Source: Clostridioides difficile ATCC 9689 = DSM 1296
GTDB lineage: Bacteria; Bacillota; Clostridia; Peptostreptococcales; Peptostreptococcaceae
Direction: 5' to 3'
Length of the DNA: 64,000 nucleotides
Assembly (NCBI RefSeq): GCF_001077535.1
Contig: NZ_CP011968.1
Coordinates: 1,488,001-1,552,000 of the forward strand
Made by a program: the position numbers and the translations under genes. Of this stretch, positions 3,987 to 56,221 are shown piece after piece; position 1 is the first letter of the stretch, and the number at the start of each line of letters is the position of its first letter. The notes under the pieces were generated by a model. It saw nothing but the letters and a program-made list of their open reading frames with translations, ran no database searches and had not been told where the DNA came from.

Positions 3987-4005
3987 CTTAGAAGAGGTGA
4001 CATTT

Positions 4006-4701
4006 ATGGAAACTAGATACTTGATATCAGGGGATAAGGCAGTGGTTGCTGAATTTGGAAATGAGATATCAGAAGATATAAACAAAAAAGTAATTTCATT
4101 TATGAGAGCAATAGAAATATCGAATCTTAAAGGTATTGTAACAGAAATGGTACCAACATATAGGTCACTTATGATAAGTTATAATCCATTAGAAATAGAT
4201 TTTGATAGTTTGATTGAGAATTTAAAAAAAATAGAAGATAATTTGGAAAGTATAGTATTACCAAAACCTAAAATACATGAGATTCCAGTATGTTATGATG
4301 AGGTTTTTGGTATAGATATTAAAAACGTTGCAAGCTACAATAATCTCACTGTAGATGAAGTTATAAAAATACACACAAGTAGAGAGTACTTGATATATAT
4401 GCTAGGGTTTACTCCTGGATTTCCATATCTAGGTGGTATGGATGAAAGAATAGCTACACCTAGATTAGAAGTGCCAAGGACTAAAATTTATGGTGGGAGT
4501 GTTGGAATAGCAGGTTCCCAGACTGGTGTATATCCTATTGATAGTCCGGGTGGATGGCAAATAATTGGTAGGACACCTTTAAAATTATATGATGAAAATA
4601 GAGAAGAACAGATTTTGCTTAGAGCTGGAGATTTTATAAAATTTGTTCCAATAACATTAGATGAATTTATAGAAATCGAAAAAAATAACTTAAGTATTTA
4701 A
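4006..4701 (+). CDS. pxpB: 5-oxoprolinase subunit B (KipI family)
   Basis: A 231-residue KipI-type subunit of PxpABC; in Bacillus subtilis KipI was first described as an inhibitor of the sporulation kinase KinA. Visible landmarks are the N-terminal METRYLISGDKAVVAEFG, the cyclophilin-like half with YLIYMLGFTPGFPYLGG, RLEVPRTKIYGGSVGIAG and SPGGWQIIGRTPL. The start is the ATG at 4006, seven bases after AGAGGTG; a longer frame back to 3970 would overlap the transporter and is not preferred. It is third in the pxp operon. Confidence 0.92.
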   Translation: METRYLISGDKAVVAEFGNEISEDINKKVISFMRAIEISNLKGIVTEMVPTYRSLMISYNPLEIDFDSLIENLKKIEDNLESIVLPKPKIHEIPVCYDEVFGIDIKNVASYNNLTVDEVIKIHTSREYLIYMLGFTPGFPYLGGMDERIATPRLEVPRTKIYGGSVGIAGSQTGVYPIDSPGGWQIIGRTPLKLYDENREEQILLRAGDFIKFVPITLDEFIEIEKNNLSI

Positions 4702-46343: not shown

Positions 46344-47293
46344 GTTTTATATTAACTAAGTGGTATGTAAATTGAAAATCTAGTTAAAAACTGCATCAAA
46401 GTATTGATGTTTTATATTAACTAAGTGGTATGTAAATCAGCAAGAGTCGCAACAACATTAACAACTTCGGGAGCGTTTTATATTAACTAAGTGGTATGTA
46501 AATTTGTATTATTACTTTTTATCAGAATAATCAAAAGATAGTTTTATATTAACTAAGTGGTATGTAAATGCAGAAGAAACAGGTTTCAAAACGATAAAAA
46601 AATAATGTTTTATATTAACTAAGTGGTATGTAAATAGAGAGAAGGGCTATTCTCTCTAGGCTTATCCTTACAAGTTTTATATTAACTAAGTGGTATGTAA
46701 ATAAACCAATCTTTTTTCCTTGAATCTTTTAAAAGTTCCGTTTTATATTAACTAAGTGGTATGTAAATGATTTTAGAACTTCATCCACAAACGAGCTTTC
46801 TACAGTTTTATATTAACTAAGTGGTATGTAAATATAGTCCTTTTCTAAATTTAGAATCAAGTTTTGGAGTGTTTTATATTAACTAAGTGGTATGTAAATA
46901 GAGTAAAACAATAGTACAAGAACAAATAAATACATGTTTTATATTAACTAAGTGGTATGTAAATACTTTTTCACGACATTTTTTTATAAAAGGAGGTATT
47001 AGTTTTATATTAACTAAGTGGTATGTAAATAAAATTATAGACAGAATGATAAATGTATTTGATGCTTGTTTTATATTAACTAAGTGGTATGTAAATACTT
47101 TCTGTAGCTCTATAGATAAATAAGGTGCTAAAGTTTTATATTAACTAAGTGGTATGTAAATTAACTTTATAAAACCCAGTAATTGCAACACTTTTATAGT
47201 TTTATATTAACTAAGTGGTATGTAAATAGTATAATGTTGAAAAGTTAGAGAGTACAATCAAGGAATTTTACATTAACTAAAATGTATAGAATA
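46344..47293 (+). CRISPR. CRISPR array, 15 repeats (14 perfect, last degenerate), 14 spacers
   Basis: The 29-base repeat begins GTTTTATATTAAC and ends GTGGTATGTAAAT. Perfect copies start at 46344, 46409, 46475, 46541, 46607, 46674, 46740, 46805, 46871, 46936, 47002, 47068, 47133 and 47199. Spacers are 36-38 bases. The 3' repeat (47265-47293) has about nine changes, marking the old end and giving the direction as rightward from the leader. The repeat is that of the C. difficile type I-B system. No cas gene lies in the window, so processing must come from Cas proteins encoded elsewhere. Confidence 0.98.
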
Positions 47294-53485: not shown

Positions 53486-54295
53486 ATGAAAGATTACTAT
53501 AAAATAGGAGAGATATCTAAAATATATGGAATAGGTAGAGATTCATTAATGTATTATGAAGAAATAGGCATTCTAAGACCAGTTAGAGATATAAATGGAT
53601 ATAGAATGTATAATATATCAGATATATGGAAATTAAATTTAATAAAAGAATTTAGAAGCTTGAACTTTCCAATGAAGAAAATAAAAGAATACCTAGATGA
53701 CAGAAGTATAGAGTCTACGAAAAATATTTTAAATGAAGAACTCGATTTAATTGATAAAAAAATAGCTGAATTTATAAGCCATAAGGAAAATATTATAAAA
53801 AGATTGAGTTCAATTGAAAGTGTAATTCAAAATACAAAAATAGATGAGATAGAGGTTGTATATATAGAAAAAAGAAAAGCTTTAGAATTAAATGCTGATA
53901 TAAAGAGGGATGAAGACTTCGATTTTTTAATTCAAAAACTTCAGAAAGAATATGAAGATAGATTTAATATACTTGGAAATAACAATATTGGTTCTGCCTT
54001 TTCTACTGAAGCAATTAATAAAGGTATATTTAATGAGTTTAAATCTGTATTTTGTTTTCTGGAAAGTAATGAGAAAGTATATAATATAGTTTTTGATGAA
54101 GGATATTATGTAACTTTAAATTATACTGGGAGTAATTCTAATAATAAGATGTATATGGAGAAGGTGTTTAAATTTATAGAAGAAAACAATTATAAGATAA
54201 TTGCTGACCCTATAGAAATCTACAAGATAGATATACATGAGACTGGAATTGTAGAGGAGTTTGTAACGGAAATTCAAGTTCCTATAACTAAATAG
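53486..54295 (+). CDS. MerR-family transcriptional regulator
   Basis: A 269-residue regulator. The N-terminal winged helix (KIGEISKIYGIGRDSLMYYEEIGILRPVRDINGYRMY) is typical of MerR, followed by a helical dimerisation rod (about 80-115) and a C-terminal domain of about 140 residues like the GyrI/SOUL effector fold of BmrR-type members. This type senses hydrophobic cations or drugs and activates an efflux gene, but no transporter is adjacent. The ATG is about 12 bases after GGAGGAG, at the long end of normal spacing. A palindrome at 53412-53427 may be its autoregulatory site. Confidence 0.85.
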   Translation: MKDYYKIGEISKIYGIGRDSLMYYEEIGILRPVRDINGYRMYNISDIWKLNLIKEFRSLNFPMKKIKEYLDDRSIESTKNILNEELDLIDKKIAEFISHKENIIKRLSSIESVIQNTKIDEIEVVYIEKRKALELNADIKRDEDFDFLIQKLQKEYEDRFNILGNNNIGSAFSTEAINKGIFNEFKSVFCFLESNEKVYNIVFDEGYYVTLNYTGSNSNNKMYMEKVFKFIEENNYKIIADPIEIYKIDIHETGIVEEFVTEIQVPITK

Positions 54296-54340
54296 CTATA
54301 TTTCAATGGATTAGATGGTAAATAGAATGAAAAAATGTTG

Positions 54341-54384
54341 ATTTGCCACCGATTTGTCACTGTGTTATAAAATCGGTAGCAAAT
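54341..54384 (+). terminator. Hairpin after the MerR gene
   Basis: ATTTGCCACCGATTT pairs with AAATCGGTAGCAAAT, with one C-A mismatch; only a short A/T-rich tail follows, so termination is uncertain. Confidence 0.5.
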
Positions 54385-54439
54385 TATATTTTAAATTATA
54401 AGATAGCATGAAAAAATAATTGTTTAGGGGGTTATAAAT

Positions 54440-54679
54440 GTGAAATGTTCTAATTGTGGAAGTGTAAATATTGAAAAGGGAATTTTAACAACTGGTGGCA
54501 TATATGCTGAAACTATTGGATTAAAATATAGAGGAGATGGAAAATTAGATAAAGTTATAAATAAAACTTTTCCAGTACAATCTACTATATATTCAGATTT
54601 ATGTTTAGATTGTGGAGAAATAGTTAGAACCTATATAAAGGATAATACTGATAGGAATTGGTGTAAAGATAAGAAATAG
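54440..54679 (+). CDS. Small zinc-ribbon-like protein
   Basis: A 79-residue protein with two CxxC pairs: KCSNCGSVNIEKGIL at the N terminus and LCLDCGEIVRTY near the C terminus, the pattern of a zinc ribbon. The middle (GGIYAETIGLKYRGDGKLDKV) is polar. The start is GTG at 54440, eight bases after AGGGGG; an overlapping ATG would be out of frame. Function unknown. It is between the MerR gene and the riboswitch-controlled gene, on the opposite strand from the latter. Confidence 0.75.
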   Translation: MKCSNCGSVNIEKGILTTGGIYAETIGLKYRGDGKLDKVINKTFPVQSTIYSDLCLDCGEIVRTYIKDNTDRNWCKDKK

Positions 54680-54865
54680 AATAATTTTTGAAGTATATTA
54701 ATATTTGAAGTTGAATTTTATTAAAGATACAAGTGAAAAAGTATAAATGGGAAGAAATTGTTGTATGGAAGAAACTTTGCATATAGGGGAGATTAGTTTT
54801 TTAATATAATAACATTTTTAAATGTAGATAAAACTAAAAAGGGTTCTCTAGAAAACAATTTCTAT

Positions 54866-55042
54866 TTAATTATACTTACTTACCAATACCATCACTTGAT
54901 GTAAACAAGATTCTACTACATTTTCTCCGTACTCTAGTATAAAATCATCTAGCTGTGTATCTATAAAATCACAATAATCATATAAACTACTAATATAAGC
55001 AGTTAACATGTGTGTACATTTATCCATTTCATCTCTAAACAT
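54866..55042 (-). CDS. 58-residue protein under a c-di-GMP riboswitch
   Basis: A short acidic protein that begins MFRDEMDKCTHMLTAYISSL and includes DYCDFIDTQLDDFILEYGE, ending HQVMVLVSKYN. It has three cysteines and is predicted helical with no membrane segment. AGGGGG lies about 12 bases before its ATG. The 5' leader holds a c-di-GMP-I aptamer (55099-55182), so its expression should follow c-di-GMP. I do not recognise a family. It is short enough to be overlooked in automatic annotation. Confidence 0.78.
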   Translation of the reverse strand: MFRDEMDKCTHMLTAYISSLYDYCDFIDTQLDDFILEYGENVVESCLHQVMVLVSKYN

Positions 55043-55098
55043 ATATATTACTATCCCCCTAAAAAACTTTCATAAAACAAAAAGAACAATATCTTTTT

Positions 55099-55182
55099 GG
55101 CAACTGGCTGACATAACTCATAGTTTATTTTATAAGCGTTAGTCCCTATAGCTTTGCGTCACTAAATTTCTCTAGTTTTGCC
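55099..55182 (-). promoter_or_regulatory. c-di-GMP-I (GEMM) riboswitch aptamer
   Basis: Read on the minus strand it matches the GEMM-I consensus: P1 arms GGCAA and TTGCC, the hairpin CTAGA-GAAA-TTTAG with a GNRA tetraloop, then GTGACGCAAAGCTATAGGG, a tetraloop-receptor pair ACTAAC with GTTATG, and CAGCC before the closing arm. The hairpin AAAAAGA/TCTTTTT follows at 55080-55098, a possible expression platform. Whether it switches on or off cannot be told. It precedes the 58-residue gene. Confidence 0.9.
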
Positions 55183-55207
55183 GATTTAGTTTTATTCTAC
55201 AACTAAA

Positions 55208-55236
55208 ATAATACACTAGGATAAGTTATTGTTCAA
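55208..55236 (-). promoter_or_regulatory. Promoter of the riboswitch transcript
   Basis: On the minus strand TTGAAC (55236-55231), a 17-base spacer and TATTAT (55213-55208), about 15-25 bases before the aptamer. Confidence 0.78.
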
Positions 55237-55372
55237 CATACTTGTCAGAAAATTGAAATATTTAACAATATCTTAACAATATGAAATCTATTTTTCACTC
55301 AAGAAACAAACTATATGTATAGAATGTTTAATAAAAATTATATTTAGTTTTGTATTGAAGTTTTTATATTAA

Positions 55373-55513
55373 AAAGTTTAGTTCACAAGGGTTACTTGGC
55401 TAGATAATAGATGAACAAAAATATCTTGAAAAAATATATATGAATGGCAAAAAACAAGGGATGAATTTTATATAGACTCATCCCGTAATTATTTATATAT
55501 TGACCTTGATTAA
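55373..55513 (+). pseudogene. Unrecognised gene tail, frameshifted
   Basis: KSLVHKGYLAR in one frame, then after a one-base shift IIDEQKYLEKIYEWQKTRD and EFYIDSSRNYLYIDLD to the stop at 55511. It reads like the C terminus of a protein but lacks a start; family unknown. Confidence 0.4.
55458..55484 (-). terminator. Terminator of the MgtC-like gene
   Basis: GGGATGA/TCATCCC stem of 7 bp over 13 bases, then TTGTTTTTTG on the minus strand. Confidence 0.78.
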
Positions 55514-55546
55514 ATATATTATTATTTTTAAGCTTCAATTTTTATA

Positions 55547-56221
55547 TTATATTTCTAAAGTTTCTATAAGAGGATTATCGCTAAATAATTTTAATAAATT
55601 TGTTTTTTTATATCCTTTAGGTAACTTAGTATATATAACTACTTCTAACCAATCCCCATCAAGGCGTTTAATATTCATGTTTATAATTTCAATATTAGAT
55701 TTTTTAAATTTACCTTCAATATATTCTATGGAATCAGTGCTGTTAGAAATTTTAAGAGAAACTTGCTCTGCTGTAGGGAGTTTCATCCATTTCCTATCTC
55801 TATGAAGTGTTATCTGTACAATAACAATAATGATACTTGAAACAATACCAACTAAGTATAATCCAGAGCCAATGGCAAGACCTGTACCGGCTGTTGCCCA
55901 TATACCAGCAGCTGTAGTAAGACCACTTACTGATTGATTTCTAATAAATATTAATCCAGCACCTAAAAAACCTATACCACTGACAACTTGTGCTGCAACG
56001 CGGGCTGGGTCTAGACCAATACCTGGAGTACCCACTATATCATTAAATCCATACTTGGAAACAATGATTATAAGTGCTGAAGCTAATGCCACTATAAAAT
56101 GAGTGCGTATTCCAGCTTCTTTTAGTCTATTCTTTCTCTCATATCCAATTAAAGCCCCACAGAAACCAGCAGTAATGATTCTTGCTATATATTCAAATTG
56201 AATCAATATATGATGGTTCAT
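55547..56221 (-). CDS. MgtC/SapB family membrane protein
   Basis: A 224-residue protein. The N-terminal 145 residues carry about five hydrophobic helices, with the family signature GFCGALIGYERKNRLKEAGI, FIVALASALIIIVSKYG and GIGFLGAGLIFIRNQSVSG. A soluble C-terminal ACT-like domain (about 150-224) follows. MgtC of Salmonella modulates the F-ATPase and is needed in low magnesium; other members may transport or sense. The start is the ATG at 56221, after GGGGGTG; spacing of nine bases. No magnesium riboswitch is seen in the 220-base upstream gap. A terminator follows at 55458-55484. Confidence 0.85.
   Translation of the reverse strand: MNHHILIQFEYIARIITAGFCGALIGYERKNRLKEAGIRTHFIVALASALIIIVSKYGFNDIVGTPGIGLDPARVAAQVVSGIGFLGAGLIFIRNQSVSGLTTAAGIWATAGTGLAIGSGLYLVGIVSSIIIVIVQITLHRDRKWMKLPTAEQVSLKISNSTDSIEYIEGKFKKSNIEIINMNIKRLDGDWLEVVIYTKLPKGYKKTNLLKLFSDNPLIETLEI

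What the first reader, a model, noticed from the sequence alone, without database searches (positions are those of the whole stretch)
54866..55236. c-di-GMP-I riboswitch controlling an unannotated 58-residue protein, 2.4 kb from enzymes that make and degrade c-di-GMP
The minus strand shows a promoter (TTGAAC/TATTAT, spacing 17), a full GEMM-I aptamer and an ORF beginning MFRDEMDKC. The aptamer is read directly; c-di-GMP binding follows from family knowledge. The product is a soluble acidic helical protein with three cysteines and no recognised domain. Genes for c-di-GMP turnover lie just beyond a 780-base gap. A small protein as direct riboswitch output may be an effector.
Basis: partly seen in the sequence, partly recalled or inferred. 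Interest (0 to 1): 0.78.

Follow-up and report, generated by a model that had tools for sequence, protein, structure and literature searches.

The report
Riboswitch-controlled relative of a sporulation inhibitor
A known C. difficile RNA switch that senses the signal c-di-GMP sits before a gene for a 58-residue protein, and that protein belongs to a family that includes a reported inhibitor of spore formation, which gives a first testable idea of what this switch's output does.

Summary
Rfam finds a full c-di-GMP-I aptamer (72.4 bits, cut-off 35) at 55192-55096(-), followed by a terminator hairpin, a ribosome site and a 58-codon ORF. It is not new: this is almost certainly Cdi1_10 before CD1424, listed in print as a c-di-GMP-I target encoding a small hypothetical protein.

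What I did not find stated in the papers searched is what the protein is. It belongs to a multigene family seen only in Clostridioides (8 of 8 genomes; 0 of 53 other relatives). All 34 open-frame copies of its own subfamily follow a c-di-GMP-I riboswitch, making it the output of 34 of 78 such sites in the genus. Three sister groups (27 copies) lack one. One is CD16671 (78% identical), whose accumulation reportedly lowers sporulation and which the antisense RNA SpoZ opposes. Another is very probably CD15111, a reported direct RgaR target. CD16671 appears to have lost an ancestral riboswitch.

Best reading: a small helical regulator, made when c-di-GMP is low, that restrains sporulation gene expression. 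Family membership is firm; function is inferred. A sign conflict remains: c-di-GMP itself is reported to inhibit sporulation.

The parts
55208..55236 (-). sigma-A-type promoter TTGAAC - 17 - TATTAT
   Evidence: 9 of 12; weak alone; same motif in 26 of 33 A-type copies examined, this one included
55096..55192 (-). c-di-GMP-I (GEMM-I) riboswitch aptamer, RF01051; very probably Cdi1_10
   Evidence: 72.4 bits, complete model
55074..55099 (-). expression platform: 8-bp A+U-rich terminator hairpin (55099-55078) directly after aptamer stem P1, then a U run
   Evidence: -7.0 kcal/mol; equivalent hairpin (-5.7 to -7.1) in 26 of the 27 A-type or fragment leaders in which located the platform (28 given); the simple terminator scan, which demands 3 G-C pairs, did not list it
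55055..55060 (-). ribosome-binding site AGGGGG
   Evidence: sequence; AGGGGGA stands before 30 of 33 A, 8 of 8 B, 10 of 11 C and 8 of 8 D copies
54866..55042 (-). 58-aa protein, subfamily A (CD1424-like), paralogue of CD16671
54824..54851 (-). 3' element CTAGAGAACCCTTTTTAGTTTTATCTAC, possibly the weak terminator of the cassette
   Evidence: its core (up to 2 mismatches) follows 28 of 33 A and 5 of 8 B copies, 0 of 20 C, D and E copies; function inferred

Best explanation
A self-contained cassette (promoter, c-di-GMP-I OFF switch, 58-aa ORF, probable terminator) makes a small all-helical regulatory protein of the CD16671 family. At low c-di-GMP RNA polymerase reads through and the protein is made; at high c-di-GMP the aptamer closes, the adjoining hairpin terminates transcription and the protein is not made. 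The protein most likely acts as its paralogue CD16671 is reported to: when abundant it damps sporulation gene expression, probably by binding one shared partner. Different inputs feed the family: c-di-GMP (subfamily A, with the window gene), antisense SpoZ RNA switched on by RgaR (CD16671), and RgaR directly (CD15111). Shown here: aptamer, terminator, coding selection in the subfamily, family membership, linkage, RgaR-type boxes. Published for relatives: the OFF response and the sporulation effect. Inferred: that CD1424 shares that effect, and the partner.
For: Aptamer and platform. Family: own-genome paralogues; 26 of 26 aligned members match PHROG 9888; 15 invariant columns in those 26. Linkage: 34 of 34 open-frame A copies, but 0 of 28 B, C, D and E copies, follow an RF01051 site; 34 of 78 above-cut-off RF01051 sites in 8 genomes have an open-frame A copy next, 44 of 78 counting broken copies. 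B is CD16671: 47 of 58 (81%) identical to copy L049, the figure published for CD16671 against CD19903; RgaR/VirR boxes 21 bp apart face it from the far side in 8 of 8 genomes, placed so that SpoZ would cover the ORF. C carries a 21-bp-spaced box pair in 10 of 11 copies and lies beside panC in the window's genome. Control: 2 looser pairs in 192 kb (both strands) of the A and fragment loci. Published: CD16671 over-expression lowered sporulation about 1.8-fold and sigE/sigG about 1.6-fold; raised c-di-GMP lowered three riboswitch-linked paralogue transcripts 4.7- to 8.9-fold.
Against: Sign: c-di-GMP is reported to inhibit early sporulation, yet it shuts these genes off, so if they inhibit sporulation they cannot be how c-di-GMP does so; at most they oppose it. 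The effect of CD16671 is modest, its deletion had no effect and knock-down of CD15111 had none. For the window's own switch the published RNA-seq change is only -2.07, with no downstream transcript detected. No sporulation result for any riboswitch-linked copy appears in the passages I read. In the window's genome the C copy begins with GTC, not a usual start codon, and two A copies elsewhere (L089, L115) have altered starts, so not every open frame need be made. No solved or viral fold resembles the model; the partner is unknown.
Confidence: 0.5

Rival explanations
1. The riboswitch-linked copies act on something other than sporulation, such as motility or surface state, and CD16671 is a specialised member. 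Being on at low c-di-GMP, like flagella, they would belong to the motile programme.
For: Co-regulated with flgB and the zinc protease gene. The sign of control does not fit the published effect of c-di-GMP on sporulation. B has its own leader and regulation.
Against: A and B proteins are 74-81% identical in the window's genome, share the invariant residues, and B appears nested inside A in the tree. The authors of the CD16671 paper thought it likely that CD19903 functions similarly.
Confidence: 0.3
2. A toxin or antitoxin-like module: small protein plus antisense RNA, as in the type I toxin-antitoxin pairs of C. difficile, kept by selfish spread near prophages and CRISPR arrays.
For: SpoZ is antisense to CD16671. 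Many broken or partial matches (21), copies near the ends of proviral contigs, one copy abutting a CRISPR array. Two c-di-GMP-I riboswitches precede type I antitoxin RNAs in prophages.
Against: Acidic, soluble-looking helical protein, not the small hydrophobic type. In the passages read, CD16671 over-expression lowered sporulation; no growth arrest is mentioned there. B and D lie at one place each in 8 of 8 genomes under purifying selection.
Confidence: 0.1
3. The ORF is passenger sequence, and the riboswitch or its short terminated RNA is the functional product.
For: No downstream transcript was detected for Cdi-1-10 in one data set. Some riboswitches outlive their ORF: 10 RF01051 sites precede broken copies.
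Against: dN/dS 0.05 to 0.14 in subfamilies A to D, frame-specific in the two tested, A and C. B, C and D keep the ORF without a recognisable riboswitch.
Confidence: 0.06

Closest known systems
Cdi1_10 (Cdi-1-10) / CD1424 of C. difficile 630
   Same: Very probably the same locus: same strand and same chromosomal order among the c-di-GMP-I riboswitches, small protein gene downstream.
   Different: Different strain record; identity rests on order, strand and description, not on a sequence comparison with strain 630.
CD16671 (small ORF antisense to SpoZ), reported sporulation inhibitor
   Same: 58 aa, 45 of 58 residues identical to the window protein; homologous leader (69-77% of aligned columns for 4 of the 8 B leaders against one A leader, L050).
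   Different: Its leader scores as no c-di-GMP-I aptamer even at E up to 1 (three B loci; none near any B copy), and the P1-terminator anchor was not found in 4 of 4 B leaders; it faces RgaR boxes and SpoZ instead.
CD15111, small ORF reported as a direct RgaR target
   Same: Same family if it is the C-type copy beside panC, as position and boxes indicate (31 of 58 identical).
   Different: 60 codons, no riboswitch, RgaR/VirR boxes 21 bp apart upstream; first codon GTC in the window's genome; identity with CD15111 inferred.
CD1990.3 (CD19903), CD2309, CD3368.2, CD1981.2
   Same: Same cassette; published as small or hypothetical proteins behind c-di-GMP-I riboswitches, the first three shown to fall when c-di-GMP rises.
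   Different: Other loci; the four copies at the matching places are 83-93% identical to the window protein.
PHROG 9888
   Same: All 26 aligned members match.
   Different: Filed as a phage family of unknown function, but no match in the 50,697 phage records searched (which warns that near records may be left out); in proviral contigs 21 of 23 matches lie within 2.4 kb of a contig end.

Membership tests
c-di-GMP-I (GEMM-I) riboswitch | covariance score above the Rfam cut-off over the whole model | tested here: met
   72.4 bits against 35, positions 1-87 of 87
c-di-GMP-I (GEMM-I) riboswitch | expression platform that ligand binding can switch | tested here: inconclusive
   terminator hairpin directly after P1, -7.0 kcal/mol; the competing antiterminator was not resolved
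c-di-GMP-I (GEMM-I) riboswitch | binds c-di-GMP and changes expression | not testable with these tools
   published for the set: all but one of 12 respond negatively by qRT-PCR; RNA-seq change for Cdi-1-10 only -2.07
CD16671 protein family | full-length sequence relationship | tested here: met
   78% identity over 58 of 58 residues, E 6.4e-28; 15 columns invariant across 26 members of five subfamilies
CD16671 protein family | accumulation inhibits sporulation | not testable with these tools
   reported for CD16671 only, in the passages read
RgaR (VirR-box) regulon | pair of CCAGTTNTNCA-type boxes 21 bp apart upstream | tested here: not met
   no pair upstream of the window gene; met by 10 of 11 C copies and, on the opposite strand, beside 8 of 8 B copies
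type I toxin-antitoxin toxin | small hydrophobic membrane-spanning protein | tested here: not met
   11 acidic and 3 basic residues of 58 and a compact four-helix model; no membrane predictor was run

The most novel reading that the evidence does not exclude
The c-di-GMP-I riboswitches of Clostridioides are used above all to run a genus-specific family of interchangeable small developmental brakes. c-di-GMP (by riboswitch), the RgaS-RgaR system (directly and by antisense RNA) and perhaps BlaI-type repressors each set the dose of a near-identical protein with one shared target, so the riboswitches connect c-di-GMP directly to the sporulation decision, a link whose pathway was reported as unidentified.
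Probability: 0.33. Interest if true: 0.8.

Novelty: new member of a known kind. Interest (0 to 1): 0.6.

Why it matters
Reports call these outputs of the c-di-GMP-I riboswitches hypothetical proteins, and the 2021 sporulation paper says that none of the riboswitches appear to affect sporulation-related genes. If the output is a paralogue of CD16671, the most frequent output of these riboswitches in the genus (34 of 78 sites) is a set of relatives of a sporulation regulator, and the question of how c-di-GMP meets the sporulation decision becomes testable with a handful of defined genes. It could also explain why single losses were silent: 8 members with open frames coexist in the window's genome (5 A, 1 B, 1 C with a GTC first codon, 1 D), so redundancy is plausible. 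The family is in addition a case in which one protein seems to have moved from riboswitch control to antisense-RNA control.

Tried and rejected
Protein family look-up: Pfam, NCBIfam and PADLOC gave no credible match; scattered weak hits (E 0.02 and worse, one to three members each) were rejected as chance. Solved structures by sequence: best E 0.61, rejected. Fold search in PDB and the viral library: nothing under E 0.001. A phage origin, suggested by PHROG 9888 and by hits in viral contigs, was rejected: no match in the phage collection, and 21 of 23 viral-contig matches lie within 2.4 kb of a contig end. An operon with the neighbouring c-di-GMP enzymes was rejected. Relatives outside the genus: the genome scan, which looks for short patterns first, returned 31 loci, 30 from Clostridioides and one 20-residue match in an Acholeplasma MAG, treated as chance. 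ORFs around the B, C, D and two A copies of the window's genome gave no shared context by eye. The box pairs upstream of subfamily D (3-4 mismatches in total per pair, 8 of 8 copies) are only suggestive: at up to 3 mismatches the reversed pattern gave 8 genome matches against 14 for the real one. Antiterminator pairing was looked at in single folds and left unresolved.

Limits of the counts: 'open-frame' A copies are 34 by my sorting of the matches; 33 were fetched and used for dN/dS, promoter and tree (G003:C72:224-397 was not). Of those 33, 31 begin with ATG, L115 starts one codon later after a shortened leader, and L089 has ATA. Fragments and broken copies (21 matches, some two to a copy) were left out of dN/dS and the tree. 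One search was given 24 of the A copies plus 4 fragments, and 4 of 8 B copies; L062's leader was not located. Only about 1 kb upstream was held per copy, so BlaI-type neighbours further off are missed. Not used: the second structure job and seven viral scans.

Full report
1. The observation. The promoter hexamers are present; alone they are no better than chance in this A+T-rich region, but 26 of 33 A-type copies examined, the window's included, keep TTGA(A/C)N, a 16-18 base spacer and TATTAT. Directly after aptamer stem P1 comes an 8-bp hairpin and a U run (-7.0 kcal/mol); 26 of the 27 A-type or fragment leaders in which located the platform have an equivalent (-5.7 to -7.1), the exception being the decayed copy L114 (-0.8). 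The ORF has 58 codons.

2. It is already in print. [quoted passage not shown] Passages of PMC11477304 list CD1424 as a small hypothetical protein and speak of small proteins of 58 aa with no conserved domains. Passages of PMC6200980 give -4.7- to -8.9-fold for three sister genes, but for Cdi-1-10 only -2.07 for the switch and no downstream transcript; they also say that Cdi-1-10 is in all 54 complete genomes then available. The 11 RF01051 sites of the window's genome follow the order and strands of that table, with one extra site (317341) and without the prophage switches Cdi1_4 and Cdi1_5; that is how I identify the window's switch.

3. The family. tblastn in the window's own genome gives 13 matches, 8 of them covering 80% or more of the query. 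Of 61 genomes, 8 of 8 in the genus match and 0 of 53 others. The genome-contig scan returned 30 Clostridioides loci and one short outlier. Five subfamilies emerge: A (window type, 34 open frames), B (8, one per genome, one place), C (11), D (8, one per genome, one place) and E (1). Selection: dN/dS 0.131 (A, n=33), 0.097 (B), 0.139 (C), 0.061 (D), and 0.048 for one A locus with 7 fetched orthologues; the other two frames give pN/pS of 1.06 and 3.39 for A (0.169 in frame) and 0.84 and 1.12 for C (0.180 in frame). The model of the window protein is a confident four-helix fold (mean pLDDT 90.9, pTM 0.74) without a known match. Not every open frame need be expressed: L089 (A) begins with ATA, L115 (A) one codon later, and the C copy of the window's own genome with GTC.

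4. Linkage to the riboswitch. Over 8 genomes, 78 RF01051 sites exceed the cut-off (of its 14 control genomes none had a site over the cut-off). All 34 open-frame A copies lie within 250 bases downstream of one, and 10 more sites precede broken copies; none of the 28 B, C, D and E copies is so placed. A more permissive scan of 15 B, C, D, E or fragment loci, E up to 1, found no c-di-GMP-I match. So the family is the most frequent output of class-I c-di-GMP switches in this genus by this count (34 of 78; 44 of 78 with broken copies).

5. What the relatives are. CCAGTTTT repeats 21 bp apart stand upstream of subfamily C (I recalled the VirR box consensus, then found VirR-like RgaR sites treated in PMC10602386). 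A genome scan with up to 3 mismatches gave 14 places (8 for the reversed control): they include pairs before an agrB-like ORF (L230), before a two-gene operon (L225), before the C copy, beside the B copy, and, with 3 mismatches, before a 103-aa ORF that may be CD2098 (L235) and the D copy. PMC10602386 (sections 8 and 9 and other passages read) reports that RgaR directly activates agrB1D1, CD2098, CD0587-0588, and, with VirR-like sites found by data mining, CD15111 and the antisense RNA SpoZ; that SpoZ covers the whole of CD16671; that CD16671 over-expression lowers sporulation about 1.8-fold and sigE/sigG about 1.6-fold while its deletion does nothing; and that CD19903 is 81% identical and likely functions similarly under different control. 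The B copy fits CD16671 in three ways: 47 of 58 residues (81%) shared with the copy at the CD19903 position (L049); boxes 21 bp apart in 8 of 8 genomes, on the opposite strand 581-588 bases from its start codon; and a geometry that suits a 528-560 nt antisense RNA. The C copy fits CD15111: a small ORF with near-perfect boxes next to panC and panB and a 304-aa ORF that I take, from memory and position, to be CotB (the name CD1511/cotB is; NCBIfam gave no match). A C-type copy with a perfect box pair also sits on plasmid pESS17301a.

6. Change of control. Four B leaders align to one A leader at 136-150 of 194-197 columns but have lost the aptamer and the A-type platform. In a tree of 61 ORFs, B falls inside A: A is one clade in 0% of 200 bootstrap trees, though the two forks that place B inside have moderate support (88/81 and 96/76). 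The simplest reading is that CD16671 descends from a riboswitch-controlled copy that lost the switch and is now opposed by SpoZ.

7. Mechanism. The best-supported account is an OFF switch that makes a small helical regulator at low c-di-GMP; its most likely action is that of CD16671. [quoted passage not shown] Repressing an inhibitor would oppose that effect, so these genes are a counterweight or act elsewhere. The nearby c-di-GMP enzymes are probably incidental: by blastn the interval between mgtC and merR holds a cassette in one of seven relatives, a decayed one in two, and none in four (one of the two, L180, ends with its contig).

8. Novelty. Riboswitch and gene are known. The tie between the riboswitch-controlled small proteins, CD16671 and CD15111 is partly in print (CD16671 with CD19903 only, in what I read); PMC10602386 contains no occurrence of 'riboswitch'. 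Searches for CD1424, for CD1990.3/CD3368.2/CD2309/CD1981.2, for CD14240-style tags, CD1511 with RgaR, CD16671, CD19903 and SpoZ (one search listed 40 of 368 papers) showed me no paper that joins them, within a library that lacks most subscription journals.

Noticed in passing
L004 / G000:C1:2764950-2765194: A c-di-GMP-I riboswitch and about the first 30 codons of a family ORF run straight into a CRISPR array. Rfam places its repeat model on the riboswitch's strand, the repeat orientation I recalled is the opposite, so whether read-through is sense or antisense to the array is open. Probably the published orphan riboswitch between CD2517 and CD2517.1.
   Followed up: partly
L049, L052, L055, L056, L058, L059, L062, L064, L070, L072, L078, L081, L110, L111, L112, L114, L115: BlaI/MecI-type repressor-like genes (PF03965 for the two tested), one or two in a row, lie divergently upstream in 17 of 70 loci, 9 of them among the 33 A copies examined, but not at the window copy.
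   Followed up: partly
L142-L164 (viral contigs): 23 proviral contig loci carry the cassette or its end, 21 within 2.4 kb of a contig end, although the phage collection gave no match: prophages may sit next to these copies, or boundaries were drawn too wide.
   Followed up: partly
G000:C1:1236382-1236413(-), L226: A VirR/RgaR-type box pair with one mismatch that is not in the RgaR target list I read; on its own strand only a 44-codon ORF follows within the fetched stretch, so it may precede an RNA or be chance.
   Followed up: partly
L237 (plasmid pESS17301a of Clostridioides sp. ES-S-0173-01), 4001-4183: A C-type member with two perfect boxes 21 bp apart is carried on a 136-kb plasmid.
   Followed up: partly
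window 53486-56221 (merR to mgtC): The interval is a variable spot: the cassette is present, decayed or absent in different Clostridioides genomes.
   Followed up: partly
L053 / G000:C1:1639147-1638983(-): The C copy of the window's genome begins with GTC where 9 of 11 C copies have GTG and one ATG; it may be poorly translated in this strain.
   Followed up: no
window 46344-47227: A CRISPR array: 14 repeats matched by Rfam CRISPR-DR14, 7.6 kb from the cassette.
   Followed up: no
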